Shown here piece after piece: positions 21,713-34,233 of a stretch of 44,331 nt of DNA (position 1 is its first letter; every line of letters starts with the position of its first letter). Below the pieces are notes generated by a model that saw only the letters and a list, made by a program, of their open reading frames with translations, had not been told where the DNA came from and made no database searches. The stretch covers positions 1 through 44,331 of the IMG/VR virus record IMGVR_UViG_3300021964_000142; one strand, given 5' to 3'. Made by a program: the position numbers and the translations under genes. Source of the DNA: a virus.

Positions 21713-23365
21713 ATGAATAGTAGGCCAGTAAAAATTAATAATGCTTTAGGGGACCTTCAGAGATTTACAGCTCCTGAAGAAGACTTTGTTGCCTATAGAG
21801 CATCATTACGATTGGCAAACGATGATTCATCTGGCGTTGGTCAATTAAGTACACTCTCAGGAACCAGTATCGGTTCATTTACAGATACATTTTTTAATGA
21901 AGCAGTAGGAACTCATCCAGGCTCATCAATAACTACTGGTTCAACAGTCACAACTGTATATCAAAGAACAGGTTCAGATTTAGATTCTGCTGATGCAAAT
22001 TTTAGAACACCAATTAATGTTAATAATGTTGCAGGTAAAATTGCCGAGTTTAGCCAAGCAGAATGGGGAGACTTAGCAAATAGATTAGCAAAAATCATCA
22101 TGACCAATGAATATCCTGGTACATTTAGATTAGGATCATCGGCTCCTAGTGGTGATTACAGTGTCCATTTAAATAATGTATTTAGTGACACACAAACAGA
22201 CGGAACAACTGTTAACTATAGCATTTACAAAAGAGCCACAATGACGGCTCCTACAAAAGTAAATGCTATGGCTATCAAAAGATCAGCCGGTCCAACAGGA
22301 ATATATCAAGGTGTTCAAGCCATGGATAGTGATCAAATGACTTATTCATTTGGTAATCATCTAAAGACTTGGATGATGGCTACATCAAATAACGTTGGTG
22401 CATATCAGATAAGATCTTCTGCTCAAGGTGTGCCTGTGGCATCAGGTACTTGGGAAGCAAGGGGTACTGCAACAGATACAAAGAAACAAACTGCTGATCA
22501 GGCTTATACTACTGATTATGCAGGAAATTATACTGGAGATTACGTTGGTGACTTTGTAGGAGACTTTAGCGGCACCTATACAATAAATTCTACTAACGAT
22601 TCAACTACAGACTCAACTAGAACTTCAACCAGAAATTCTACTACAGAATATATAGGTAACTATACCGGAGACTTTGTTGGTACTTATACTGGTGATTTTA
22701 CTGGTAACTTTATTGGAAACTTTGCTGGTAACTATGTTGGTGATTTTATCGGTGACTTTACTGGAGACTTTATCGGTAACTATGAGGGTGAATATTTAAA
22801 TCCCGATGGCACTGATTATACAACAGACTACATAAGTGCAAACTATGTCGGCATTAATATATTAAACGAACAATATGTTGGTAACTTTATTGGTGGACCA
22901 TATCTTGGTTATCCAGCTTATGTATTTGACTATGAATCGGTTAGGATTGGAGCTCAAGAAATTGCTTATACTGGTAACTATGCTGGAGAATATATAGGAC
23001 CAGGCTTTTTTGGAGAGTATACTAGAAATTCAACTGCAAACTTTGTAAGGAATGATACTAACGATTCAACTAGAGACTCTACACGAGATAGTACAAATAA
23101 TAGCACTAGAAACCAAGACGAAAACTTTACTCAAACATTTACAGCAACTTATACTGGTGACTTTACTGGTGATTACGTTGGTAATTTTATCGGAAACTTT
23201 GTTGGAGACTTTACAGGTAACTTCGAAGGAACCTATACAACTAACTCAACTTTAGCTTCACTAACAGCCTATGAAGGCGTTTATACAGGAAACTTTTTAG
23301 GAGAAACAATACAGTCCTCATCTGAAACGATTGAAACATATACACTTTATGTTCGAGTAGCATAA
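21713..23365 (+). CDS. Tail-fibre-like protein with degenerate tetrapeptide repeats (paralog A)
   Basis: 550 residues. Residues 1-about 260 are a non-repetitive head domain with VGTHPGSS, YPGTFRLGSSAPSGDYSVHL and VGAYQIRSSAQG. From about 262 to 525 the protein is almost wholly a four-residue repeat, aromatic-(Thr/Val/Ile)-Gly-(Asp/Asn) (YTGD, FVGT, FTGN, FIGN), changing to NSTx/DSTR units twice. The last about 25 residues (GNFLGETIQSSSETIETYTL) end YVRVA. Head and tail are shared with the next gene, showing duplication. A shaft-like or solenoid beta structure is plausible for the repeats. Start ATG at 21713 follows a GGGTAAACC stretch; no late promoter precedes it. Confidence 0.78.
   Translation: MNSRPVKINNALGDLQRFTAPEEDFVAYRASLRLANDDSSGVGQLSTLSGTSIGSFTDTFFNEAVGTHPGSSITTGSTVTTVYQRTGSDLDSADANFRTPINVNNVAGKIAEFSQAEWGDLANRLAKIIMTNEYPGTFRLGSSAPSGDYSVHLNNVFSDTQTDGTTVNYSIYKRATMTAPTKVNAMAIKRSAGPTGIYQGVQAMDSDQMTYSFGNHLKTWMMATSNNVGAYQIRSSAQGVPVASGTWEARGTATDTKKQTADQAYTTDYAGNYTGDYVGDFVGDFSGTYTINSTNDSTTDSTRTSTRNSTTEYIGNYTGDFVGTYTGDFTGNFIGNFAGNYVGDFIGDFTGDFIGNYEGEYLNPDGTDYTTDYISANYVGINILNEQYVGNFIGGPYLGYPAYVFDYESVRIGAQEIAYTGNYAGEYIGPGFFGEYTRNSTANFVRNDTNDSTRDSTRDSTNNSTRNQDENFTQTFTATYTGDFTGDYVGNFIGNFVGDFTGNFEGTYTTNSTLASLTAYEGVYTGNFLGETIQSSSETIETYTLYVRVA
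22501..23260 (+). repeat. 12-bp coding repeat tract in paralog A
   Basis: Degenerate tandem 12-bp units of the kind GGTGACTTTACT / GGAAACTTTATC encode the tetrapeptide. The tract is interrupted at about 22800-23000 by a less regular stretch. Synonymous sites differ from unit to unit, so the peptide repeat is better conserved than the DNA. Confidence 0.85.
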
Positions 23366-23388: not shown

Positions 23389-26154
23389 ATGGCAGCACCT
23401 CTTAAATTAGTCGCAACTAAAGACTTACGCGAATTTGATTCAGATAACTATGAATACATAGCTTACCAGGCTGCACTTCAACTTGCAGCTGGAGATTCTG
23501 CAGAAGCAGGTTCACTTTCAACCGTTGCAACTGGAAACACAAGTATTGGTACATATAGAGATACCTTTTATAATCAGGCAGTAGGAACTCATCCAGGTTC
23601 AGCACTATCTACTGGAAATACTGATACAACCTTATACCAAAAGACAGGTACTGCTGCCGAAACAGATTCAGATATTAGATCCCCGTTAAAACAAGATATA
23701 GGTGGAACAACTAATGTAAGAGAACAGACATCAGCTGAGGTAAACGCTTTAACAGATGTATTATTAAGTCGTATTATGACATACGAACATCCAGGTACGT
23801 TTAGACTTGGTTCATCTGCACCTAGTGGTGATTATGCAGTACATTTATCCGGAGTATTTACAGATACGCAAACAGATGGTACAACTGTAACATACAACAT
23901 TTATAAGAGAACTCAAAATAGTAATATTTACACAGACTATGCTGGTTCTCCACCAACAGAAATATTACCTGTAGGTATTAAAAGAGACGGTGGTGGTTCA
24001 GGTACGTATGAAGGATTTATAGAACTTACTCAAAGACAGACTCAATTAACATTTGGTCAAAGAGCTAAAACACGAATTATGTCAAGCACCGATTATATTG
24101 GTGCTTATCAATTACGGTCATCTGCAGACGGTGCACCAGTAGCTGCAGGTACTTGGGTTGCTAGAGGAACTGCAACTGATACAAGAAAAGAAACAGCTGA
24201 TGCAGATTATACAACAGACTTTGAAGGTATCGTATACGAATCAGATTATGAAACAACCTTTACTGGAAACTATATTGGAGACTTTACTGGTAATTTCATA
24301 GGAGACTTTGTTGGTGCTTATGCGTCTGATTATACAAACCCAGATGATCCAGCTGCAAACTCTACGGCCAACTCTACGCGAAACTCTACTGCAAATGCAG
24401 AAGAAGATTATACAGGAGACTTTGTTGGAGACTTCGTTGGTACTTACACAGGTGACTTTATTGGAGACTTTGTAGGAACATATACAGGCGATTTCATAGG
24501 TGACTTTGTCGGCACATATGTTGGCACATTTACTGGTGACTTTGTCGGAACATATGTCGGAGACTTTACAGGAGACTTTATTGGAACATATGTTGGTGAC
24601 TTTACTGGAGACTTTGTCGGAGACTTTACTGGTAACTTTATAGGAGATTTCGTAGGTACTTATGTTGGAGACTTTACTGGTAACTACATTGGTAACTTTG
24701 TCGGAGACTTCTTAGGACCTGTTACATATACTGGTGACTTTGTTGGTACTTACACTGGTGACTTTACTGGTAACTTTGTCGGAGACTTTACTGGTGACTT
24801 TACTGGAGACTTTGCTGGTAACTATATAAACGTAGATGCAATTAACTTTGCTGGACCAATAGATTATATTGGTGACTATGTTAACGTCGACCAAATTGCT
24901 TATGTAAACCCAGACGGTATTAACTATCAGGGTCCAATAGATTATGTTGGTGACTATGTTAACGTCAACCAAATTGCTTATACCAACGTAAACCAAATAG
25001 CATATACGAACGTTAACCAGATTGCTTATACTAATGTTAACCAAATTAACTATTATGGTCCTGGACCAACTTACTATGGACCTGGACCTACTTATTACGG
25101 ACCAAGTCCTGCAGTAGAAAAAACATATACAAGAAGTAGTTACAATAACTTTAGAGAAACTTTTTATCTTGGAAACTTTACTGGTACTTATCAAAACCTT
25201 GATGGTATCGCATACCAAAATGTTAACCAAATTGCTTATGTTAACGTCAACCAAATTAACTATCAGGGTCCGGGTCCTACTTACTATGGACCAGGTCCTA
25301 CATATTTTGGTCCTGGACCAACTTTTTTTGGACCATCACCTGCATACGCTGGTAACTATGTAAACGTAAATGCTGCAAACTATTATGGTCCAGGACCAAC
25401 TTTTTTTGGACCATCACCTGCATACGCTGGTAACTATATAAATCCAGATGCTGCAAACTATTTTGGGCCCGCAGATTTTGAAGGTAACTATACAACAAAC
25501 TCAACTGCAAACTCTACTGCTGACTCTACAAATAATAGCACAGCAGATCAAGATGAAAACTTTACATCAGATTATACTGATCCAGATGCTGCAAACTCAA
25601 CAAATGATTCAACAGTAGATTCAACAAGAAACAGTACTAATCCTGCTGATGAAAACTTTACAAGTGATTATACTGCTAATTCTATCGATAACTTTACTGC
25701 TAACTCAACCGGTCCATCTGATGAAAACTTTACATCAAATTACACTACACCTGCTGATGAAAACTTTACAAGTGATTATGAAACTCCAGTAGATGAAAAC
25801 TTTACCGCTAACTCAACTAGAAATGAAGACGAAAACTTTACAAGTAACTACACTGCTGATCAAGATGAAAACTTTACGACTAACTATGGTGGTAACTATG
25901 TCGGTGATTATATTGGAGACTTTACTGGAGACTTTACAGGTGACTTCTTAGGACCTATTACATATACTGGAGACTTTGAAGGAAACTTTACGACTGACTA
26001 TACACGAAATTCTACTGCAGATGATTTAGAAGATTATGTTGGAACATTTACTGGAACGTTTGGTTTAGTATTTGTTGGAAACTTCCTTGGAGAAACAATT
26101 CAATCTTCTGCAGCAACTGTAGAGACATATACTCTATATTGTAGAGTAGCTTAA
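23389..26154 (+). CDS. Large tail-fibre-like protein with tetrapeptide and other short repeats (paralog B)
   Basis: 921 residues. The head (about 1-265) parallels paralog A: YIAYQAALQLAAGDSAEAGS, VGTHPGSA, HPGTFRLGSSAPSGDYAVHL, IGAYQLRSSADG and GTWVARGTATDT. Residues about 270-485 are tetrapeptides (YTGD, FVGT, YVGD, FTGN). About 485-700 mixes NVNQIAYT octapeptides and YYGPGPT heptapeptides. About 700-835 holds NSTx units and DENFTSDY/DENFTSNY repeats. Then YVGD/FTGD units return before the conserved end (GNFLGETIQSSAATVETYTL, ending YCRVA). Very high Asp/Asn/Gly/Tyr/Thr content and almost no Lys in the repeats. Probably an extended fibre shaft or receptor-contact element; function inferred. 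Confidence 0.8.
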   Translation: MAAPLKLVATKDLREFDSDNYEYIAYQAALQLAAGDSAEAGSLSTVATGNTSIGTYRDTFYNQAVGTHPGSALSTGNTDTTLYQKTGTAAETDSDIRSPLKQDIGGTTNVREQTSAEVNALTDVLLSRIMTYEHPGTFRLGSSAPSGDYAVHLSGVFTDTQTDGTTVTYNIYKRTQNSNIYTDYAGSPPTEILPVGIKRDGGGSGTYEGFIELTQRQTQLTFGQRAKTRIMSSTDYIGAYQLRSSADGAPVAAGTWVARGTATDTRKETADADYTTDFEGIVYESDYETTFTGNYIGDFTGNFIGDFVGAYASDYTNPDDPAANSTANSTRNSTANAEEDYTGDFVGDFVGTYTGDFIGDFVGTYTGDFIGDFVGTYVGTFTGDFVGTYVGDFTGDFIGTYVGDFTGDFVGDFTGNFIGDFVGTYVGDFTGNYIGNFVGDFLGPVTYTGDFVGTYTGDFTGNFVGDFTGDFTGDFAGNYINVDAINFAGPIDYIGDYVNVDQIAYVNPDGINYQGPIDYVGDYVNVNQIAYTNVNQIAYTNVNQIAYTNVNQINYYGPGPTYYGPGPTYYGPSPAVEKTYTRSSYNNFRETFYLGNFTGTYQNLDGIAYQNVNQIAYVNVNQINYQGPGPTYYGPGPTYFGPGPTFFGPSPAYAGNYVNVNAANYYGPGPTFFGPSPAYAGNYINPDAANYFGPADFEGNYTTNSTANSTADSTNNSTADQDENFTSDYTDPDAANSTNDSTVDSTRNSTNPADENFTSDYTANSIDNFTANSTGPSDENFTSNYTTPADENFTSDYETPVDENFTANSTRNEDENFTSNYTADQDENFTTNYGGNYVGDYIGDFTGDFTGDFLGPITYTGDFEGNFTTDYTRNSTADDLEDYVGTFTGTFGLVFVGNFLGETIQSSAATVETYTLYCRVA
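24240..25980 (+). repeat. Mosaic of short coding repeats in paralog B
   Basis: Regular 12-bp units (GGAGACTTTACT-like) lie at about 24260-24840 and 25890-25990. 24-bp units for NVNQIAYT lie around 24950-25050 and 25205-25260. 21-bp units for YYGPGPT lie around 25050-25110 and 25265-25330, with a near-identical block of about 50 nt recurring at about 25323 and 25392. 12-bp NSTx units and DENFT-coding segments fill 25490-25890. There are no spacers; all of it is coding. Confidence 0.85.
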
Positions 26155-26192: not shown

Positions 26193-26630
26193 ATGAAACG
26201 CACTTGGCAAAATCATGCGTTCTGGGAAAACTACCAAAAAGATAGAATAACCGGAATACTTATCATTGAAGATGGTAATAAAAAAACTAGGCAGCAATTA
26301 ACTGTTTATAAATTTAATCAAGATGGAACTGATAATCCAGATTTCCAAGAGATTATAGATCAAGTTGGAGTTGAAGCTCTAAATAGAAATACCGCTGAAA
26401 GAAATGACCGAAAAGCATCTGATGCTAAAGCTCGGCATATAAAAGAGCAACAGCAAAAGAAGCAAAGGGAATTAGCTCAGTTATTTGAAGCAAAATTGCA
26501 GGCATTTGAAATAGATGAAATTAAGAACTCTAGTAATCGTGAACTTAAATCGAAATTACGGAAATCAAAGAATATGGTTGAGCTGCAGATCTATGCGCAG
26601 CTCATCGTCAAAGAAGCCTTAGGACTATAA
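26193..26630 (+). CDS. Helical protein of unknown function after the repeat fibres
   Basis: 145 residues. The N-terminus (TWQNHAFWENYQKDRITGIL) leads into a beta-type segment (IIEDGNKKTRQQLTVYKF). The second half is highly charged and helical, with Lys/Glu/Gln-rich stretches suggesting a coiled coil (about 70-105). A GAGGT ribosome site lies 8 nt before the ATG. An AT-rich TATATAAC upstream is a poor late-box variant. Its place between fibre genes and modification enzymes would fit a fibre assembly factor, but I recognise no family, so the function is left open. The glycosyltransferase gene follows after 1 nt. Confidence 0.6.
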   Translation: MKRTWQNHAFWENYQKDRITGILIIEDGNKKTRQQLTVYKFNQDGTDNPDFQEIIDQVGVEALNRNTAERNDRKASDAKARHIKEQQQKKQRELAQLFEAKLQAFEIDEIKNSSNRELKSKLRKSKNMVELQIYAQLIVKEALGL

Positions 26631-26631
26631 C

Positions 26632-27378
26632 ATGGAAAATAATGGTTACCTAATAGTTGCTTCTCGCAAACCTGCATTCTATTCTATGGCAATTAATCTT
26701 GCCGAATCAATTAAAGATTATTATGAAGACGCTCAAATCTGTTTAGTCACCGAAGAACAATGGATAGACGTAAGAGCTAAAAATGTTGCTGATCACATCA
26801 TACATTGTGACGATCATTATCGCGCCAAGATCTGGGGTATGGCACAGACTCCATTTGATAAGACGTTCTATATTGATGCTGACTGTGAAGTAGTGCACGA
26901 AGATATCGCCACAGTCTTTGATCAGCTCGGTGACGACGATTTAATGTTTACCTATTTAGGAGAAGATCGTTATTACGTCTTTAAAGAAGTATTCTTTGGT
27001 CCAAAAGAAAATCAAAATAAATTAGAACTGTGTGGAGCTTGTTGTTTATATGACTGGAGAAAACCTATTGTAAGAGATTTCATTAATGATTGGTTTGACT
27101 TATTTCATAAACAATGGAATAATGCTTGGTGGCCAAAAGACGAAAAAGGAAATTGGGATGAAGTTAATTATCCTCGATCTCTTAGACAATGGGATCAGTT
27201 TACTTTATGGTGGTTAACTAAGAAAGAAGATAAATATAAAGATCTAAAAGTTGGAATATTTGAAGACGATGCAAGATGGAATTGGTATACTGGTTATGAT
27301 AAAACTAGAACTTTTACAAAGAACCCAGAAATAATTCATCACTATTCTTATATGGCACCAAAAGATAAAATATTATGA
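26632..27378 (+). CDS. Glycosyltransferase, GT-A fold with DxD motif
   Basis: 248 residues. The N-terminus is Rossmann-like (NGYLIVASRKPAFYSMAINLAESI, then YEDAQICLVTEEQ). It is followed by KIWGMAQTPFDKTFYIDADCEV, in which D82-A83-D84 forms the metal- and nucleotide-sugar-binding DxD of GT-A glycosyltransferases. Later LCGACCLYDWRKPIVRDFINDW and QWDQFTLWW resemble the acceptor-side helices of small GT8/GT-like proteins. No membrane segment or signal is seen, so it acts in the cytosol. It is coupled (ATGATG overlap) to the oxygenase-like gene. The acceptor is unknown: fibre protein, host glycan or DNA are all possible. Confidence 0.7.
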   Translation: MENNGYLIVASRKPAFYSMAINLAESIKDYYEDAQICLVTEEQWIDVRAKNVADHIIHCDDHYRAKIWGMAQTPFDKTFYIDADCEVVHEDIATVFDQLGDDDLMFTYLGEDRYYVFKEVFFGPKENQNKLELCGACCLYDWRKPIVRDFINDWFDLFHKQWNNAWWPKDEKGNWDEVNYPRSLRQWDQFTLWWLTKKEDKYKDLKVGIFEDDARWNWYTGYDKTRTFTKNPEIIHHYSYMAPKDKIL

Positions 27379-28037
27379 TGACGTCAATTGAAATAAAGAA
27401 TCGAGAACTCTTAGAAATATTAGGAGAAGCTCAGTGGTTTGTCGATAACCACGATAAAGTACAAAGTGCTATAAAATATGAAGGACGTAATGTAGATGCT
27501 ACTCCATATATAAATGAAGAATTTAAATGGAAAACTATCAATGAAGGCAAAGCACATGAAGGTTATCCTATTGCAGCTGCTGGCTTTAATGTTAAACCAG
27601 AACAAGTAAAGTATAGTAATTTTACTGAAGAAATACCTAATAGATATGAAAGCGTAAATACACAATTAATGTCGTTCTTTGGAACAAGGTGGAATGCTTT
27701 ATTTCATATTTATCCACCTAAAGGTTTCTTGGCTTGGCATAATAATGCTAATGCATCATCATACAATTTAATCTTTACATATAACCCTACTGGTGATGGA
27801 TATTTTGCATATCACGATTGGAAAACAAATAAAACAGTAAAGATGAAAGACAATAAAGGTTGGAGTTGTAAGTATGGATTCTTTGCTTCTTATAAAGAAC
27901 CAAAGGAAAGATTAGTTTATCATTGTGCTTATACTGATAGTTGGCGAATGACAATATCTTATATTTACAATGCTTATGATACTGAAATCGGAAAAGAATT
28001 TCAACAACAAGTTATTGAAGAAATAGAAACAGAATAA
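27375..28037 (+). CDS. 2-oxoglutarate/Fe(II)-oxygenase-like protein (aspartyl-hydroxylase-type)
   Basis: 220 residues. The C-terminal half has the double-stranded beta-helix landmarks. GFLAWHNNAN carries His122 (H-N-N, with Asn124 where H-x-D is usual), followed by LIFTYN and GDGYFAYHDW strands. Then come VYHCAY with distal His183 and SWRMTISYIYN with Arg191, the expected 2OG-binding Arg. Aspartyl/asparaginyl beta-hydroxylases use two His and no Asp, so the H-x-N form need not abolish activity. Such oxygenases are frequent in marine T4-like phages. It is coupled to the glycosyltransferase and followed by a terminator, so the two enzymes end this unit. The substrate is unknown. Confidence 0.65.
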   Translation: MMTSIEIKNRELLEILGEAQWFVDNHDKVQSAIKYEGRNVDATPYINEEFKWKTINEGKAHEGYPIAAAGFNVKPEQVKYSNFTEEIPNRYESVNTQLMSFFGTRWNALFHIYPPKGFLAWHNNANASSYNLIFTYNPTGDGYFAYHDWKTNKTVKMKDNKGWSCKYGFFASYKEPKERLVYHCAYTDSWRMTISYIYNAYDTEIGKEFQQQVIEEIETE

Positions 28038-28062: not shown

Positions 28063-28090
28063 AAAAGGCAACTTTGTGTTGCCTTTTTTT
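28063..28090 (+). terminator. Intrinsic terminator after the oxygenase gene
   Basis: AAAAGGCAAC (28063-28072), TTTGT loop, GTTGCCTTTT (28078-28087), with the T run continuing to 28090: a 10-bp stem followed by seven T. It ends the upstream fibre and modification unit. The last T of the run is also the first base of the next TATAAATA box. Confidence 0.9.
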
Positions 28091-28130: not shown

Positions 28131-28484
28131 ATGGCACAGCAAGAAGATTTAGAGATTGACCAAGGTGCAGACGTTGCAATTGAGTTATATGTAGACAGTG
28201 CTGATGGCTCTGTTAAAAACTTAACAGATATGACACTAGCAGCAACAATGAAACTAAGCTATAACGCTGATAGCTCAAACACAGTATCTTTTGGAACTGC
28301 TATTACAAATGCAGCTGGAGGAGTTTGTTTATTAACATTAACTAATACTCAGACAAATGCGTTAAAGCCTAAGAAAAGGTACGTATACGACGTTGAACTA
28401 TCCTTTATAGACGATAGTGGAAACTCATTAGTAGAAAGATTATTAGAAGGAAGTATTTACGTAAATCCTTCAGTAACAACATAA
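28131..28484 (+). CDS. Small beta-sandwich protein, BppU-N-like
   Basis: 117 residues. The pattern DQGADVAIELYVDSADGSVKN with LTDMTLAATMKLSY, then AAGGVCLLTLTNTQTNALKP and KRYVYDVELSF, ending LLEGSIYVNPSVTT, follows the layout of N-terminal domains of phage baseplate upper proteins (BppU_N-like). In these a short Ig-like domain reads 'qGd...dG...dLtg', then 'l.l....t..l..g.y.ydv' and 'eG.i.v...vT'. It is followed after 10 nt by the 1370-residue fibre gene and shares its late promoter. A structural fibre-base or collar role is inferred. Confidence 0.6.
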   Translation: MAQQEDLEIDQGADVAIELYVDSADGSVKNLTDMTLAATMKLSYNADSSNTVSFGTAITNAAGGVCLLTLTNTQTNALKPKKRYVYDVELSFIDDSGNSLVERLLEGSIYVNPSVTT

Positions 28485-28494
28485 GGAAGATAAT

Positions 28495-31400
28495 ATGTCA
28501 AGTGTTAGTAAGATTATAGTCGGTACTCCAATACGAAGATTACTGGGATCTAACTCAGCGTTAGGTTCTTTGGCTAATGTTACTATCACAAGTGTACAAA
28601 ACGGACAAATAATTGTTTATAACTCTGCTACTAGCGAATGGGAAAACGCATCACTTGATTCAGGAGAAGGTCTTAATTTAAGTTGGGATTCTGCTGCAAA
28701 TAAATGGACTCTATCTGCAGAATTTGCAACAACATCTAATCCAGGTATTGCAAGTTTTAATACTTTAGATTTTAGCGTTACTGATTCGGCTGCTGTTTCT
28801 GTTAAATTTGACGCAGTACCAGAAAGTCTCATACCAGCTACTGACAGTGCGTATGACTTAGGTTCTGCTGCAAAGAAATGGAAAGACTTATATTTAAGTG
28901 GAAATACCATTTATATTGGTGGAGGAGTTGTATCATATGATTCTAGTGCAGGTGAACTCAAAGTTGCTGGAAATACTGTTCTTACAACTGGTTCTGATGG
29001 TGATTCAGCTATTAGAGCTTTGTTCTCAGCTGACGGAGTAGCTAACTATAATCCAATAAATGGATTAATTAGTGTTGACAGTGCACGAGTCAAAAATATT
29101 TTTAGTGTATCAGGAAGTGGTGGATTAACTTATGATTCAGCTTCTGGCCAATTCTCAGATTCAGACAGATCAGCTACTCAAATAAAAGGCTTAATATCTG
29201 CTGATGGTAAAATATTAGGTTATAACAGCTCGACTGGTGTTATTAGTGCTGATAGCTCAGACATAAGAAACATCTTTAGTGCATCTGGTAGCTTATCATA
29301 CGATAGTGCAACTGGACAATTTAGTTATACCGACTCAGATCGTTCAGCTTCTTCTATTAAAGGATTATTCAGTGCATCTGGTAGCTTATCATACGATTCA
29401 TCAACCGGACAATTCAGCTATACAGACTCAGATCGATCTGCAGCACAAATTAAAGGCTTATTGACTGCTGATGGTAAGATACTTGGATATAATAGTACAA
29501 CTGGTTTATTCAGTGTCGACAGTGCAGATATAAGAAATATCTTTAGTGTATCTGGAGACTTATCATACGATTCGTCTACTGGACAGTTTAGTTATACTGA
29601 TTCTGCTAGATCAGCTGCGCAGATTAAAGGTTTATTCTCTGCAGCTGGTGACTTAAGTTATAATAGTTCTACTGGTGAATTTAGTTATACAGATTCAGAT
29701 AGAACAGCTAACATTATAAAAGGAATGTTCTCTGCTACTGGCGGAGGATTATCATATGATAGTTCTACTGGTCAATTTACAGACTCAGATAGATCGCGAT
29801 CACAATTATTAGGATTATTCTCAGCTTCTGGAAGCTTATCATATGATAATTCTACTGGTATTTTCAGTTATACTGATTCAGATCGAAGTGCACAGCAAAT
29901 TAAAAATTTATTTACTACATCTGGTGATACTACAGTATTAAGTTATAATAGTACAACTGGTGCATTTAGCACATCTTTGGTTGATTCAGATCTTGCTAAA
30001 ACAAATGCAAATGACGTATATCATGAAGGAATAACAATACCTGATACTAAATTAATTAACTTTGCAGATTCTACTGGATCTGTAGTAGCTAGCTTAGGAC
30101 ACTCTTCAGACGTTGTTAACTTAAATCATGATGGCAGAATAACAATTACTAGCTCTGCTAATGAAGTTAGATTGTTTGCATACGATTCTGTAAGAGTTAG
30201 AGCAACAAATATTGGTGCTTCAATTAATGGCAGAATGACAGCAGACAGTGCATTTGTTGACGGAGTTAAATTATCAACTACTGTAGGTCATCCTGCTTAC
30301 TCAGAAGGTTTAGTTTGGTACGATAATATCCACAAAACACTTAACTATTATGGTGATGACAGCGATGTTGTTTTTGAGATAGGCATCGAAGAACATCAAA
30401 GAGTTTATAACAATACTGGTGCAGATATTGCAGCAGGTAAACCTCTATACTTTAGTGGTAATTATAATCCAGGTGGTGGTATTGTACCCGTACCTACTGT
30501 TGGATTAGCAGATGCAACAGATGTAAATGCTTATAACGCACAAGGTCTATCTGCAAGTATAATTGCAGACGGTACTTATGGTTATATGATAAGATCAGGT
30601 CTTGTAGAAGGGTTTGATACCTCAGGATTAACTGCAGGACAAAACGTATTTGTTGGATTAGCTCCAGGGCTATTACAAAATGCTTCACCTACCTATCCAA
30701 ACTATCCAATGTGTATTGGTTGGGTTGTTAAATCAGATGCATCAAATGGTGTTATCTCAATTAACCAACAAAACCACTCTGTTAATAGCTTCCGTGTAAG
30801 AACAGATGCTCATATCGGTAATAACTTAAGGATCGATGGTAACTTAACAGTTGTAGGAACACAAACAATTACATCAACCCAAAATATCAATATCGGTGGT
30901 TCGATACAGTACTTAAATGCTGGTAATACAATCGGAGAAGCTGGCACCACATTTGTTGGTACAGGTCTAGACGATGCATTCTTTGCAGGCCACTATTCTG
31001 GTGACTCAGCAACTAAATCATTCTATGTAAAGATTGATGCAACAGGAACACCAGATACATTTGAATGGGGCTTTGATTCAGCAGTAGGAGCAGTTGCTAC
31101 AGGTGTTGCAATTGATGGTACTGCACAAATGCTTGACAGTGCATATAATATCAGTATTGACTTTGGTGCAACTACTGGTCACACATTAAATGATAAATGG
31201 ACAGGTACAGCTACTGCGACTAATGTTGATACAGGTCTATTCTCAAATAGAAATGCTGGAGGTAACTATACACACGTTGGTATGTACTTCGATGTATCTA
31301 CAAATAAATGGACATTCTTAAATGCTTATGATTCAGAACCAGGTGTTATTATCAATCCTGCAAATGGAACATACGGTGCTATTAAAGCTGCAACCTATGA

Positions 31401-32607
31401 AGGTAATCTAACAGGTAATGTTACAGGTCAAGTATCTGATATTTCAAACCACACAACTACAAACTTAGCAGAAGGTAGTAATCTTTATTATACTGATGCA
31501 AGAGCAAGAAATGCTCTAAAAGTTGGTGGTACTTCACTTTCGTACGATAGTTCAACAGGTGAATTATCATATTCTGACTCAGATAGAAGTAGAGCTCAGG
31601 TATTAGGATTATTCAGTGCATCTGGCTCATTGAGTTATAACAACTCAACTGGTAACTTTAGCTATACAGATTCTGATAGATCAAGAGCTCAGATACTTGG
31701 ATTATTTAGTGCAGGCGGAAACTTATCTTATAACTCTACAACTGGACAATTCAGTTATACTGACTCAGATATATCTGGTCAAGTTAGGGGAATGTTCTCA
31801 GTTGGTGGAGATTTAGCTTATGACTCAGCTACTGGACAATTCAGTTATACTGACTCAGACAGATCTGCTTCACAAATCAAGGGTTTATTTACTGCTTCTA
31901 GCGGATTAAAAGTCACAAGTGGTTTATTTGAATTAGATTCTAATGCATTCACACCATCAGTAAGAGCACAAATATCTGGTGATAAAGGGTTAACATATAA
32001 CTCAAGCACAGGCGTAATGGATGTTGATTCTGCTAACATTAAAGGAATGTTTAGTGTTACAGATAACGGAGGCGATGGTTCTTTAAGTTATAGTAATGGA
32101 GTAATTACTTATACTGGTCCAAGTGCATCTGAAGTTAGAGCACACTTAACAGCATCAGGTGGATTAAAAGTCACAAGTGGTCTATTTGAATTAGACTCTA
32201 ATGCGTTTACACCATCAGTTAGAGCCCAATTAACTGGTAATAAAGGATTAGCTTATAACTCATCTACTGGTGAATTTAATCTTGACTCTGCAAATGTTAG
32301 AGGAATATTTAGTGGTGCTGGAGACATAACCTATAATAGTGGTACAGGTGAATTTAGTTATACAGACTCAGATCGATCTGCAGCACAAATTAAAGGATTG
32401 TTTACTGCTGATGGTAAAATATTAGGTTACAATAATACAACTGGATTATTTACCGTTGATAGTGCTGACATAAGTAATATTATCACCGCAGATGTTGATA
32501 AAACATTTGTTGATGCTCTTAATGTAGATGCTGATACACTTGATGGTCAACAAGGTACATATTATCGAATTAACGTTTATAACGCAGCGGGTACTTTATT
32601 GAACTAA
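28495..32607 (+). CDS. Long tail-fibre-like protein with about 31-residue repeats
   Basis: 1370 residues. The head contains WENASLDSGEGLNLSWDSA and an ATDSAYDLGSAAKKWKDLYL module. Residues about 200-495 and 1010-1335 hold tandem repeats of about 31 residues built on GLFSASGSLSYDSSTGQFSY and TDSDRSAAQIK. Variants are TADGKILGYNSTTGLF and DSADIRNIF. The centre (about 630-790) is a non-repetitive fibre module (EHQRVYNNTGADIAAGKPLY; GLVEGFDTSGL; GWVVKSDASNGVISIN), followed by an HIGNNLRIDGNLTVVGT module. NLAEGSNLYYTDARARNAL at about 990-1008 is a common fibre motif. The end, VYNAAGTLLN, matches the 435-residue fibre protein. Probably a long fibre; trimerisation and receptor roles are inferred. 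Confidence 0.82.
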   Translation: MSSVSKIIVGTPIRRLLGSNSALGSLANVTITSVQNGQIIVYNSATSEWENASLDSGEGLNLSWDSAANKWTLSAEFATTSNPGIASFNTLDFSVTDSAAVSVKFDAVPESLIPATDSAYDLGSAAKKWKDLYLSGNTIYIGGGVVSYDSSAGELKVAGNTVLTTGSDGDSAIRALFSADGVANYNPINGLISVDSARVKNIFSVSGSGGLTYDSASGQFSDSDRSATQIKGLISADGKILGYNSSTGVISADSSDIRNIFSASGSLSYDSATGQFSYTDSDRSASSIKGLFSASGSLSYDSSTGQFSYTDSDRSAAQIKGLLTADGKILGYNSTTGLFSVDSADIRNIFSVSGDLSYDSSTGQFSYTDSARSAAQIKGLFSAAGDLSYNSSTGEFSYTDSDRTANIIKGMFSATGGGLSYDSSTGQFTDSDRSRSQLLGLFSASGSLSYDNSTGIFSYTDSDRSAQQIKNLFTTSGDTTVLSYNSTTGAFSTSLVDSDLAKTNANDVYHEGITIPDTKLINFADSTGSVVASLGHSSDVVNLNHDGRITITSSANEVRLFAYDSVRVRATNIGASINGRMTADSAFVDGVKLSTTVGHPAYSEGLVWYDNIHKTLNYYGDDSDVVFEIGIEEHQRVYNNTGADIAAGKPLYFSGNYNPGGGIVPVPTVGLADATDVNAYNAQGLSASIIADGTYGYMIRSGLVEGFDTSGLTAGQNVFVGLAPGLLQNASPTYPNYPMCIGWVVKSDASNGVISINQQNHSVNSFRVRTDAHIGNNLRIDGNLTVVGTQTITSTQNINIGGSIQYLNAGNTIGEAGTTFVGTGLDDAFFAGHYSGDSATKSFYVKIDATGTPDTFEWGFDSAVGAVATGVAIDGTAQMLDSAYNISIDFGATTGHTLNDKWTGTATATNVDTGLFSNRNAGGNYTHVGMYFDVSTNKWTFLNAYDSEPGVIINPANGTYGAIKAATYEGNLTGNVTGQVSDISNHTTTNLAEGSNLYYTDARARNALKVGGTSLSYDSSTGELSYSDSDRSRAQVLGLFSASGSLSYNNSTGNFSYTDSDRSRAQILGLFSAGGNLSYNSTTGQFSYTDSDISGQVRGMFSVGGDLAYDSATGQFSYTDSDRSASQIKGLFTASSGLKVTSGLFELDSNAFTPSVRAQISGDKGLTYNSSTGVMDVDSANIKGMFSVTDNGGDGSLSYSNGVITYTGPSASEVRAHLTASGGLKVTSGLFELDSNAFTPSVRAQLTGNKGLAYNSSTGEFNLDSANVRGIFSGAGDITYNSGTGEFSYTDSDRSAAQIKGLFTADGKILGYNNTTGLFTVDSADISNIITADVDKTFVDALNVDADTLDGQQGTYYRINVYNAAGTLLN
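29092..29982 (+). repeat. 93-bp coding repeats, first block of the long fibre gene
   Basis: About nine units of about 93 bp (31 residues), some shorter. Consecutive units near 29281 and 29374 start with more than 20 identical nucleotides exactly 93 nt apart. Confidence 0.85.
31528..32496 (+). repeat. 93-bp coding repeats, second block of the long fibre gene
   Basis: The same repeat family returns after the central module. A 38-nt stretch at 32359-32396 is identical to 29419-29456 in the first block, about 2.9 kb away in direct orientation. A second internal pair lies at about 31904 and 32161 (GLKVTSGLFELDSNAFTPSV). Confidence 0.85.
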
Positions 32608-32623
32608 TATATAATATTACATT

Positions 32624-33631
32624 ATGCTTCCATTTGAAAAAGGTCAAGAATATATAGATTTCATAAAAGATTATGACGTTCAGCATCATGAACAGTTAAT
32701 TAATCCTATTAGAAAAATTGAAGAAGAAATATACGATTTCTTTGGTATTTTTATTGTCGATAGAACTAAAGTATTTAAACAAGGTGCTGAATATAAAATA
32801 GTTGAAGAAATACCTGAAGGCCAAGTTGCAAAAACGTTTAGTCAATTAGTTGACGAAAGAGCAGAGCAACTTAAAGAAAAATATAAAGATAGACCTATGG
32901 TACTTATGTGGTCAGGTGGTTTAGATAGTACTACTGCTTTTTATGCACTTGTTAAAGCTGACTGTAAGTTAATTATGCATATAAACCATCACGCAATTGC
33001 TGAGCATCCATTATTAGCTGCAGAAATATTAAGTGGAAAATTTAAAAGAAACGTAGTACACAAATATGTTCATACTGGAGCTCTTGGTTCTCGTAAAATG
33101 GGGATCCCAGATTGGACGCATCCATGTGAATTTAACTATAGAGAATGGTTAAACTCTCAAGATAAGCCTATCGTAATTACAGGAGAGATTGGAGACCAAT
33201 TGTTTGGAAGTGCTATATCATATGTTCATTCGTTTAAAACGCGACAAGACTTTTATAGAAAAAGAGTTCCTGAGAATATTGCTAATGAGCTAGAACCAAC
33301 AATTAAAAACTTCCTAAATAAACCTGAGCACCGAATAAGTTTTGGTGAATGGACATGGGCAGTTAATTTTACATGTAAATACCAAAATGTATTATTAAGA
33401 ATGGGTTCACTTTGGAGACTATCTCCATTATTTGGTAATTGTGATCACTTCTTTAACACAAAAGAATTTCAATTGTGGTCTATGCAAAATTTTGAAAAAA
33501 ATGCAAGCTATCAGTCTCAGTATGTATATAAACAGCCAATGCGAGAATATATAATGGGTAAAGGCGGAGATCAAACATGGGCCATGAATAAAAGAAAAAT
33601 TGGCTCGTTATGCCAGGTAAAATACATATGA
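32624..33631 (+). CDS. Asparagine-synthetase-like PP-loop ATPase (no glutaminase domain)
   Basis: 335 residues. The ATP-pyrophosphatase P-loop S-G-G-L-D-S-T lies at 97-103 (PMVLMWSGGLDSTTAFYAL). VITGEIGDQLFGSAIS at about 184-199 matches the TGEGGDELFGG motif of AsnB-type synthetase domains. There is no N-terminal Cys-2 glutaminase domain; the first 90 residues are a different charged region. Such stand-alone domains adenylate a carboxylate or amide and use free ammonia or another nucleophile, as in sugar- or peptide-modifying amidotransferases. The upstream gap holds only an imperfect TATATAAT 8 nt before the ATG. The cupin gene overlaps its end. Substrate unknown. Confidence 0.72.
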   Translation: MLPFEKGQEYIDFIKDYDVQHHEQLINPIRKIEEEIYDFFGIFIVDRTKVFKQGAEYKIVEEIPEGQVAKTFSQLVDERAEQLKEKYKDRPMVLMWSGGLDSTTAFYALVKADCKLIMHINHHAIAEHPLLAAEILSGKFKRNVVHKYVHTGALGSRKMGIPDWTHPCEFNYREWLNSQDKPIVITGEIGDQLFGSAISYVHSFKTRQDFYRKRVPENIANELEPTIKNFLNKPEHRISFGEWTWAVNFTCKYQNVLLRMGSLWRLSPLFGNCDHFFNTKEFQLWSMQNFEKNASYQSQYVYKQPMREYIMGKGGDQTWAMNKRKIGSLCQVKYI

Positions 33632-34233
33632 ACATAGTAAAATATTCAAAAGATGAAATGACAACTGTTGTAAGTGATACAAATGATTTGTATTCTTATA
33701 AAGTATTCATTGGTAAACATACAGTACCTGTTGGTTCAGATGAATCATTATGGTATGTTGAAGGTGATACAGTAAAAACTGCAGTTAATAAAAATATCAC
33801 AATAGATCAATGTGGAGTTATTATAAAAGGTTATACTCCATTTGATAGAAGTTGTCAAATAAATCACTGGGCAACTTTACCCTATATTGATGGATGTGCT
33901 ACAACTCAGTTATTACCACCTATAAGAGTTGGTGATCCTACATTTCAAATGTTACACATGCCACCTCACTCATCAGAGCAAGCTCACCATATACACTCAA
34001 CGGCTAGAATAGTTTATGTGTATCAAGGTTATGGTGAATGTATCTATGGAACAAAAGTAAAGAATCATAGCATGCCTTTAGAAGAAGGTGATACACTTAT
34101 ATTAGATAAAATGGTACCTCATCACTTTATTACACATGAAAAGTCATTAGTTGTTTTACCACTTCATGTTTGGTCATCACCAGGTAAAGATGAATTTAAT
34201 CACCCAATGTTCAATGGAACGCACGAAGTTTAA
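33628..34233 (+). CDS. Cupin-domain protein
   Basis: 201 residues from the ATG at 33628. An in-frame ATG at 33610 also exists, but 33628 gives the ATGA overlap with the preceding stop used throughout this genome and has an AGG-like site upstream. The C-terminal half is a cupin barrel: MPPHSSEQAHHIHSTARIVYV supplies the clustered His residues of motif 1 and YQGYGECIYG follows. PLEEGDTLILDKMVPHHFITH gives motif 2 with its His. Cupins of this size act as metal-dependent isomerases, oxygenases or sugar-binding proteins. Paired with the PP-loop gene it may form a small modification pathway; the reaction cannot be told from sequence. Confidence 0.7.
   Translation: MNIVKYSKDEMTTVVSDTNDLYSYKVFIGKHTVPVGSDESLWYVEGDTVKTAVNKNITIDQCGVIIKGYTPFDRSCQINHWATLPYIDGCATTQLLPPIRVGDPTFQMLHMPPHSSEQAHHIHSTARIVYVYQGYGECIYGTKVKNHSMPLEEGDTLILDKMVPHHFITHEKSLVVLPLHVWSSPGKDEFNHPMFNGTHEV

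What the first reader, a model, noticed from the sequence alone, without database searches (positions are those of the whole stretch)
26632..28037. Glycosyltransferase and oxygenase pair inside the fibre cassette: possible fibre modification
A GT-A glycosyltransferase (DxD at 82-84) and a 2OG-oxygenase-like protein of the aspartyl/asparaginyl-hydroxylase type are translationally coupled and lie between fibre genes, ahead of a terminator. The neighbouring fibres are extraordinarily rich in Asp, Asn, Thr, Ser and Tyr in accessible-looking repeats, including dozens of N-S-T triplets. A testable idea is hydroxylation and/or O- or N-glycosylation of the repeats. Alternatives are modification of host surface glycans or of small metabolites.
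Basis: inference. Interest (0 to 1): 0.52.

Follow-up and report, generated by a model that had tools for sequence, protein, structure and literature searches.

The report
Fibre-linked glycosyltransferase–oxygenase enzyme pair
Two enzymes, one that looks like a sugar-adding enzyme and one that looks like an oxygen-adding enzyme, travel together with repetitive tail fibres in a group of aquatic bacterial viruses, so they probably decorate those fibres, much as animals modify collagen.

Summary
26632-27378 encodes a 248-aa protein whose AlphaFold model (pLDDT 94.8) matches GT8 enzymes, glycogenin-1 first (Z 17.9, rmsd 3.4, 194 aligned); D82 and D84 are invariant in 44 of 44 sequences. 27375-28037 overlaps it by ATGA and encodes a double-stranded beta-helix protein (pLDDT 95.0) closest to PHD2/prolyl-4-hydroxylases (Z 10.8, rmsd 3.8, 152 aligned). 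Its metal motif is H-x-N...H, not H-x-D, in 50 of 50 sequences and 15 of 15 extra paralogues. In 50,697 phage records, fibre domain, linker gene, GT and oxygenase each hit the same single record (C48C1). Gene order varies, yet both enzymes stay beside fibres. Best reading: the pair modifies the fibre. Asp, Pro, Lys and N-S-T are poor universal acceptors; Tyr, Thr and Ser occur in all 68 fibres counted. Against: one lineage, so shared inheritance inflates the linkage; six of 68 fibres lack the tetrapeptide signal yet keep the pair; the oxygenase has paralogues elsewhere. No chemistry is shown.

The parts
21713..23365 (+). fibre 1, 550 aa, conserved N-terminal domain plus [F/Y]-x-G-[D/N] tetrapeptides
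23389..26154 (+). fibre 2, 921 aa, N-terminal domain (about residues 4-277) plus 69 counted tetrapeptide units; probable substrate (inference)
26193..26630 (+). 145-aa linker gene (called p145 here) between fibre and GT in the common order; no known family; possible assembly factor (inference)
26632..27378 (+). GT8-like glycosyltransferase, 248 aa
26875..26883 (+). codons of D82-A83-D84 (DxD); D82 and D84 invariant in 44 of 44
27375..28037 (+). double-stranded beta-helix, 2OG-oxygenase-like protein, 220 aa; its start overlaps the GT stop by ATGA
27738..27746 (+). codons of H122-N123-N124, variant metal motif HxN (H122 and N124 invariant, 50 of 50)
27921..27947 (+). codons from H183 (distal His) to R191 (putative 2OG-binding Arg), both invariant
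28063..28087 (+). stem-loop followed by a T-tract, possible terminator (weak)
28131..28484 (+). fibre-assembly protein, PHROG 1084/3304 (L-shaped tail fibre assembly)
28495..32607 (+). downstream fibre, 1370 aa, other repeats

Best explanation
The two enzymes are a dedicated virion-modification module. They are made from the same gene cluster as the repeat fibre and act on it (or on its sister fibre) in the infected cell before assembly: the GT8-like enzyme puts a sugar from a nucleotide donor on hydroxyl side chains of the fibre (most plausibly Tyr, Thr or Ser of the [F/Y]-x-G units), and the oxygenase-like protein, an HxN variant of the prolyl-hydroxylase fold, oxidises a residue of the same fibre, perhaps to create or tune the GT's acceptor. 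Shown: anatomy, predicted folds, invariant active-site residues, linkage. Inferred: that both are active, that the fibre is the substrate, which residue, which sugar, and whether the steps are sequential.
For: Folds and invariant sites. Linkage from different starting genes: GT-fetched, 55 of 56 GT loci also hold the oxygenase (the other ends early) and 50 of 56 hold a repeat fibre within 5 kb; p145-fetched, 73 of 79 GT loci hold the oxygenase (the other 6 end within 3 kb); fibre-domain-fetched, 53 of 55 GT loci (the other 2 end within 3 kb). The same single record of 50,697 for each of the four genes. Among 71 GT clusters (90% identity) from 218 loci the order is fibre(-fibre)-p145-GT-oxygenase-assembly gene in 52; in rearranged cases each enzyme still lies beside a fibre or the fibre-p145 unit: fibre-p145-GT-fibre-oxygenase 4, GT-assembly-fibre-p145-oxygenase 2, assembly-fibre(-fibre)-p145-GT-oxygenase 3; in L264 a repeat ORF also precedes the moved GT. 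The next boundary is plastic (oxygenase to assembly gene 39 to 5049 nt) while GT and oxygenase mostly overlap. Possible sugar supply: nucleotide-sugar dehydrogenase over cut-off in 10 of 13 large records and NDP-sugar epimerase in 10 of 13, side by side in 9 (positions).
Against: One T4-like lineage (window terminase 68% to C48C1, about 47% to cyanophages), so loci are not independent and synteny can be inherited without shared function. Six of 68 fibres show no period-4 excess, and L084 has almost no repeat, yet the pair stays. The oxygenase has paralogues beside the tail-tube/UvsY genes and near replication genes without a GT. HxN may mean a weakened or different chemistry. The sugar-nucleotide genes lie among replication genes and may serve something else; 3 of 13 lack each over cut-off, and the dehydrogenase matches only part of its family models. 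The pelagimyophage paper PMC7029224 prefers host O-chain modification for GT8 enzymes of such phages (passages read).
Confidence: 0.6

Rival explanations
1. The GT (and perhaps the oxygenase) modifies host surface glycans, for superinfection exclusion or to keep progeny from sticking to debris; it lies near fibres because both belong to a host-recognition cluster.
For: GT8-type GTs of related marine myophages are read that way in PMC7029224 (passages); LgtC and other glycan-building enzymes are good fold matches; a second GT-like gene follows in some loci (L023, PHROG 1962).
Against: The host-recognition region is described as hypervariable (PMC7029224), but this pair is present in every fibre-domain locus with room and stays beside fibres through rearrangements; an oxygenase has no obvious place in that scheme (inference).
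Confidence: 0.2
2. Only the GT acts on the fibre; the oxygenase modifies another virion protein (its paralogue sits next to the tail-tube gene) or is a catalytically altered relic with a structural role.
For: Paralogue between tail tube and UvsY in C48C1 and related contigs; HxN motif in all.
Against: GT and oxygenase overlap by exactly 4 nt in 35 of 70 junctions and occur together in all fibre loci with room; invariant H122, H183, R191 argue for a kept active site.
Confidence: 0.12
3. The pair makes or modifies a small molecule, or acts on phage DNA, and its place is chance plus inheritance.
For: Glycosyltransferases and 2OG oxygenases act on DNA in other phages (passages of PMC12619734 and PMC7824862); AlkB is among the fold matches.
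Against: A fixed place inside the fibre cluster over GT identities down to 28%; no nucleotide-modification or biosynthetic genes beside it in the loci read.
Confidence: 0.08

Closest known systems
Glycogenin (GT8; PDB 3t7n)
   Same: Best fold match over the whole protein (Z 17.9, rmsd 3.4, 194 aligned, 16% identity); DxD; glycogenin sugars a tyrosine (recalled), and the fibres are Tyr-rich
   Different: No self-acceptor shown; only 3 of 43 members give any Pfam GT8 match at E 0.1 (best 0.00085) and the window protein gives none
PHD2 / Pseudomonas prolyl-4-hydroxylase / AlkB (2OG-Fe(II) oxygenases)
   Same: Double-stranded beta-helix, with distal His and Arg at strand starts
   Different: H-x-N instead of H-x-D/E; many fibres have few prolines (23 of 68 have 3 or fewer beyond residue 250); about 10-12% identity
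Collagen-type hydroxylase plus glycosyltransferase modules, including mimivirus (R699 glucosylates galactosyl-hydroxylysine of collagen; abstract of PMC9546862) and Skp1 modification (recalled)
   Same: Oxygenase and sugar transferase serving one protein, in collagen a repetitive one; a Skp1-pathway GT (6mw5) is a close fold match (Z 15.6, rmsd 3.3, 191 aligned)
   Different: Phage, separate small proteins, non-collagen repeats without universal Pro or Lys
Glycosylated virions of mycobacteriophages (Freeman et al. 2023; seen only as cited in PMC12619734)
   Same: Phage virion proteins carry sugars
   Different: Reported sites are C-termini of capsid and tail tube; no oxygenase partner and no repeat fibre in the passage read

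Membership tests
GT8 glycosyltransferases | GT-A fold like known GT8 enzymes | tested here: met
   glycogenin Z 17.9, rmsd 3.4, 194 aligned; LgtC Z 15.0, rmsd 3.4, 206 aligned
GT8 glycosyltransferases | DxD metal motif | tested here: met
   D82 and D84 invariant in 44 of 44
GT8 glycosyltransferases | Sequence match to Pfam PF01501 | tested here: inconclusive
   window none; 3 of 43 members weak, best E 0.00085; 11 of 43 match GT2 instead, best 0.0004
GT8 glycosyltransferases | Transfer from a nucleotide sugar with retention | not testable with these tools
   needs an assay
2OG-Fe(II) oxygenases (P4H/PHD type) | Double-stranded beta-helix fold | tested here: met
   pLDDT 95.0; PHD2 Z 10.8, rmsd 3.8, 152 aligned
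2OG-Fe(II) oxygenases (P4H/PHD type) | HxD/E...H facial triad | tested here: not met
   H122-x-N124...H183 in 50 of 50, and HxN in 15 of 15 paralogues added later
2OG-Fe(II) oxygenases (P4H/PHD type) | Basic residue for 2OG on the strand after the distal His | tested here: met
   R191 invariant, 8 after H183, start of strand 191-198
Asp/Asn beta-hydroxylase (AspH type) | Sequence match to its Pfam family | tested here: not met
   no such match in 49 members at E 0.1
Asp/Asn beta-hydroxylase (AspH type) | Fold neighbourhood | tested here: inconclusive
   see Tried and rejected
Hydroxylase-plus-GT modification of a structural repeat protein | Both enzymes genetically tied to the repeat protein | tested here: met
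Hydroxylase-plus-GT modification of a structural repeat protein | Modified residues on the repeat protein | not testable with these tools
   needs mass spectrometry

The most novel reading that the evidence does not exclude
A phage pathway in two steps: an HxN variant of the prolyl-hydroxylase fold hydroxylates the aromatic residue of [F/Y]-x-G units (a motif seen in nearly all the fibres, F and Y being interchangeable) and a glycogenin-like GT sugars the new or the phenolic hydroxyl, giving a glycosylated repeat fibre unlike collagen but built on the same logic, general to a T4-like lineage of aquatic phages.
Probability: 0.2. Interest if true: 0.8.

Novelty: new variant of a known kind. Interest (0 to 1): 0.58.

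Why it matters
If true, a group of aquatic T4-like phages makes chemically modified, sugar-bearing fibres with its own enzymes. That would change how receptor binding and host range are read from fibre sequence, would help explain the odd low-complexity fibres, and would add an unusual HxN oxygenase family to enzymology. The pair is small, has confident models and can be tested by co-expression with a short fibre segment.

Tried and rejected
Sequence-only family search: no Pfam or PHROG hit of weight for either window protein; members of the alignments give only weak, scattered hits; profiles against PDB sequences find nothing credible. So the assignments rest on folds and motifs.

N-glycosylation of NST: NST is zero in 31 of 68 fibres; rejected as universal site. 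Asp as universal site: zero in L095, L096, L097 and at most 3 in 5 of 68. Pro or Lys as in collagen: 3 or fewer Pro in 23 of 68, 3 or fewer Lys in 54 of 68. Tyr is not perfect either: L084 has only 5 Tyr beyond residue 250, mostly near its C-terminus. The acceptor argument assumes one universal residue type beyond residue 250; some rows behind it are weak (L084 a short fibre, L009 with its N-terminal domain displaced). A 63-aa fragment row for L255 crashed the first version; one search asked for more than 300 aa, so a 661-aa ORF of L255 took its place.

Bacterial relatives: one genome scan gave 5 loci; 2 carry the full set with repeat fibres (phage-like contigs in MAGs), 3 are weak GT-only relatives (24-28% over part) with no oxygenase or fibre. 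Rows counted as 'no fibre despite room' were L087, L016 and L035, and again L152 and L179, which are the same contigs as L087 and L016: only about 1.5-2.4 kb are held upstream of the GT, and a further gene can stand between fibre and p145 (L010, L015), so they are not shown to have a fibre. The viral scans keep the best 80 (p145: 80 of 355 stretches; fibre domain: 80 of 185, giving 76 loci), so distant relatives were not seen.

AspH-type folds were not among the displayed fold rows; that excludes nothing. BFVD has one close structural relative (A0A6J7WTX7, 31% identity, TM 0.85) and then a drop. Literature: searches (open-licence PMC library only); others returned none, and in the listings of the others I saw no title or abstract on this pair; of the listed papers I read only passages or abstracts of five. 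Freeman 2023 is not held.

Full report
What is there. The window is a 44,331-base virus record of a T4-like phage: its terminase is 68% identical to that of Phage C48C1 (Kyanoviridae) and about 47% to cyanophages. Two repeat fibres (21713-23365, 23389-26154) are followed by a 145-aa gene (p145), the GT (26632-27378), the oxygenase-like gene (27375-28037), a fibre-assembly gene (28131-28484) and another fibre (28495-32607). GT stop and oxygenase start share ATGA.

The GT. No Pfam or PHROG match of weight, but 44 non-redundant sequences align with D82, D84, R64, K66, D188, Q189, W193 and W194 invariant. AlphaFold with 43 window and viral sequences gives pLDDT 94.8. Foldseek and VIA-align both put glycogenin first (Z 17.9, rmsd 3.4, 194 aligned), with the Skp1 galactosyltransferase 6mw5 (Z 15.6, rmsd 3.3, 191 aligned), GlyE, LgtC and LARGE1 below. 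These are nucleotide-sugar GTs and several act on proteins (general knowledge). A protein acceptor is thus plausible, not shown.

The oxygenase. AlphaFold with 49 sequences gives pLDDT 95.0 and a double-stranded beta-helix. Best folds are PHD2 (Z 10.8, rmsd 3.8, 152 aligned) and P4H enzymes, with AlkB first in Foldseek. H122 ends one strand, H183 begins another and R191 starts the last, as in canonical enzymes (general knowledge), but the second ligand position is Asn in all 50 sequences and in 15 of 15 paralogues taken from C48C1 and larger contigs. AspH and 2OG halogenases also lack the carboxylate ligand (PMC10947486, passages read), so activity is possible, yet the chemistry is open.

The co-occurrence test. 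Starting from the fibre N-terminal domain alone (18-row profile), 76 loci came back; 53 hold both enzymes and 23 end too soon; none with 3 kb downstream of the fibre lacks the pair. Starting from p145 (80 loci), 79 hold the GT, 73 of these also the oxygenase, the other 6 end within 3 kb. Starting from the GT, 55 of 56 hold the oxygenase and 50 of 56 a repeat fibre within 5 kb; of the other 6, 5 hold under 1.5 kb upstream and L087 about 2 kb. In 50,697 phage records each of fibre domain, p145, GT and oxygenase hits one record, the same one. The loci overlap between routes and belong to one lineage; 218 GT loci collapse to 71 clusters at 90% identity and 39 at 70%.

Order. Of the 71 clusters, 52 have fibre(-fibre)-p145-GT-oxygenase-assembly gene; 7 have the same without a recognised fibre N-terminal domain in the stretch; 2 have fibre(-fibre)-p145-GT-oxygenase without the assembly gene; 4 have a second fibre between GT and oxygenase and 1 more ends in that second fibre; 3 have the assembly gene upstream; 2 have the GT moved ahead of the assembly gene and fibre. 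The oxygenase-to-assembly distance ranges from 39 to 5049 nt, so the surroundings are not simply frozen.

What the fibres share. 62 of 68 non-redundant fibres exceed the best of 20 shuffles in period-4 aromatic residues; the six that do not are L122, L130, L150, L060, L084 and L009; L060 has a YxGSR-type repeat instead. In L096 and L097 the repeat is about 75 residues, mostly Tyr, Thr, Ser, Gly and Ala with few Asn and no Asp, and the cassette is complete. Beyond residue 250, minima over 68 fibres are Thr 16, Tyr 5, Ser 4, Asn 2, and zero for Asp, Phe, Gln, Pro and Lys; NST is missing in 31. If one residue type serves in all, Thr, Tyr or Ser is favoured; a side-chain carbon of the aromatic residue is a bolder option.

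Beyond the pair. Of 13 large records with the cassette, all carry one full-length GT (G001 has an extra 35-residue weak match) and one to three oxygenase copies (7 with three, 3 with two, 3 with one). One paralogue follows the tail-tube gene, another lies near the replicative helicase in C48C1. Of 48 oxygenase-fetched loci 16 hold no GT: 3 of them (L011, L027, L050) carry the assembly gene downstream and are cut at the oxygenase, 13 are of the tail-tube kind by length and I read the surroundings of 5 of these. In a FastTree tree (no support values read) the tube-linked paralogues branch inside the fibre-linked group and the replication-linked ones apart, beside L095-L100. Nucleotide-sugar dehydrogenase and epimerase genes sit side by side in 9 of 13 records; the C48C1 epimerase is closest to 5u4q and the 6zl6 group in the PDB. 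They could feed the GT, but they lie among replication genes.

Judgement. Fibre modification by the pair is the best explanation (0.6), host-glycan modification the main rival (0.2). The sequential hydroxylate-then-glycosylate pathway is attractive by analogy with collagen and mimivirus (abstract of PMC9546862) but rests on inference. My searches showed no report of such a pair on phage fibres (open-licence library only); phage virion glycosylation as such is known (cited in PMC12619734).

Noticed in passing
L268 18267-18920 (C48C1 CDS0017); L032 10001-10630; L036, L044, L012, L014: An oxygenase paralogue with the same HxN motif follows the tail-tube gene and precedes UvsY; a possible modifier of the tail tube.
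   Followed up: partly
L268 40130-40804; L269-L277: A third oxygenase clade near the replicative helicase (NifU-like gene next in C48C1), motif WHTN.
   Followed up: partly
window 32624-33631 and 33610-34233: A 335-aa protein with a weak QueC/PAPS-reductase-like match (PHROG 1550, E 2.3e-5) overlaps a cupin gene (PF07883, E 2.7e-8) after the third fibre; the same two are in L003, L004 and L052.
   Followed up: no
L023 2834-3586, L073 2947-3717, L069 9507-10882: Extra genes between the oxygenase and the assembly gene; L023's matches a phage glycosyltransferase family (PHROG 1962, E 1.6e-9), L069's first a weak GT8 (E 0.013).
   Followed up: partly
L268 35326-37226 (C48C1) and positions: Epimerase and nucleotide-sugar dehydrogenase side by side; the C48C1 dehydrogenase matches only from about residue 62 of 319 (profile 78-295 of 413), so its first part is divergent or missing.
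   Followed up: partly
L263, L264: Contigs in bacterial MAGs (Sphingobacteriales, Gammaproteobacteria) carry the cassette with repeat fibres and look like phage contigs binned with bacteria.
   Followed up: no
L004 10695-11156 and 11262-12215: A CxxCxxCC iron/zinc-chelating protein (PF03692) and a DUF932 protein inserted between oxygenase and assembly gene.
   Followed up: no
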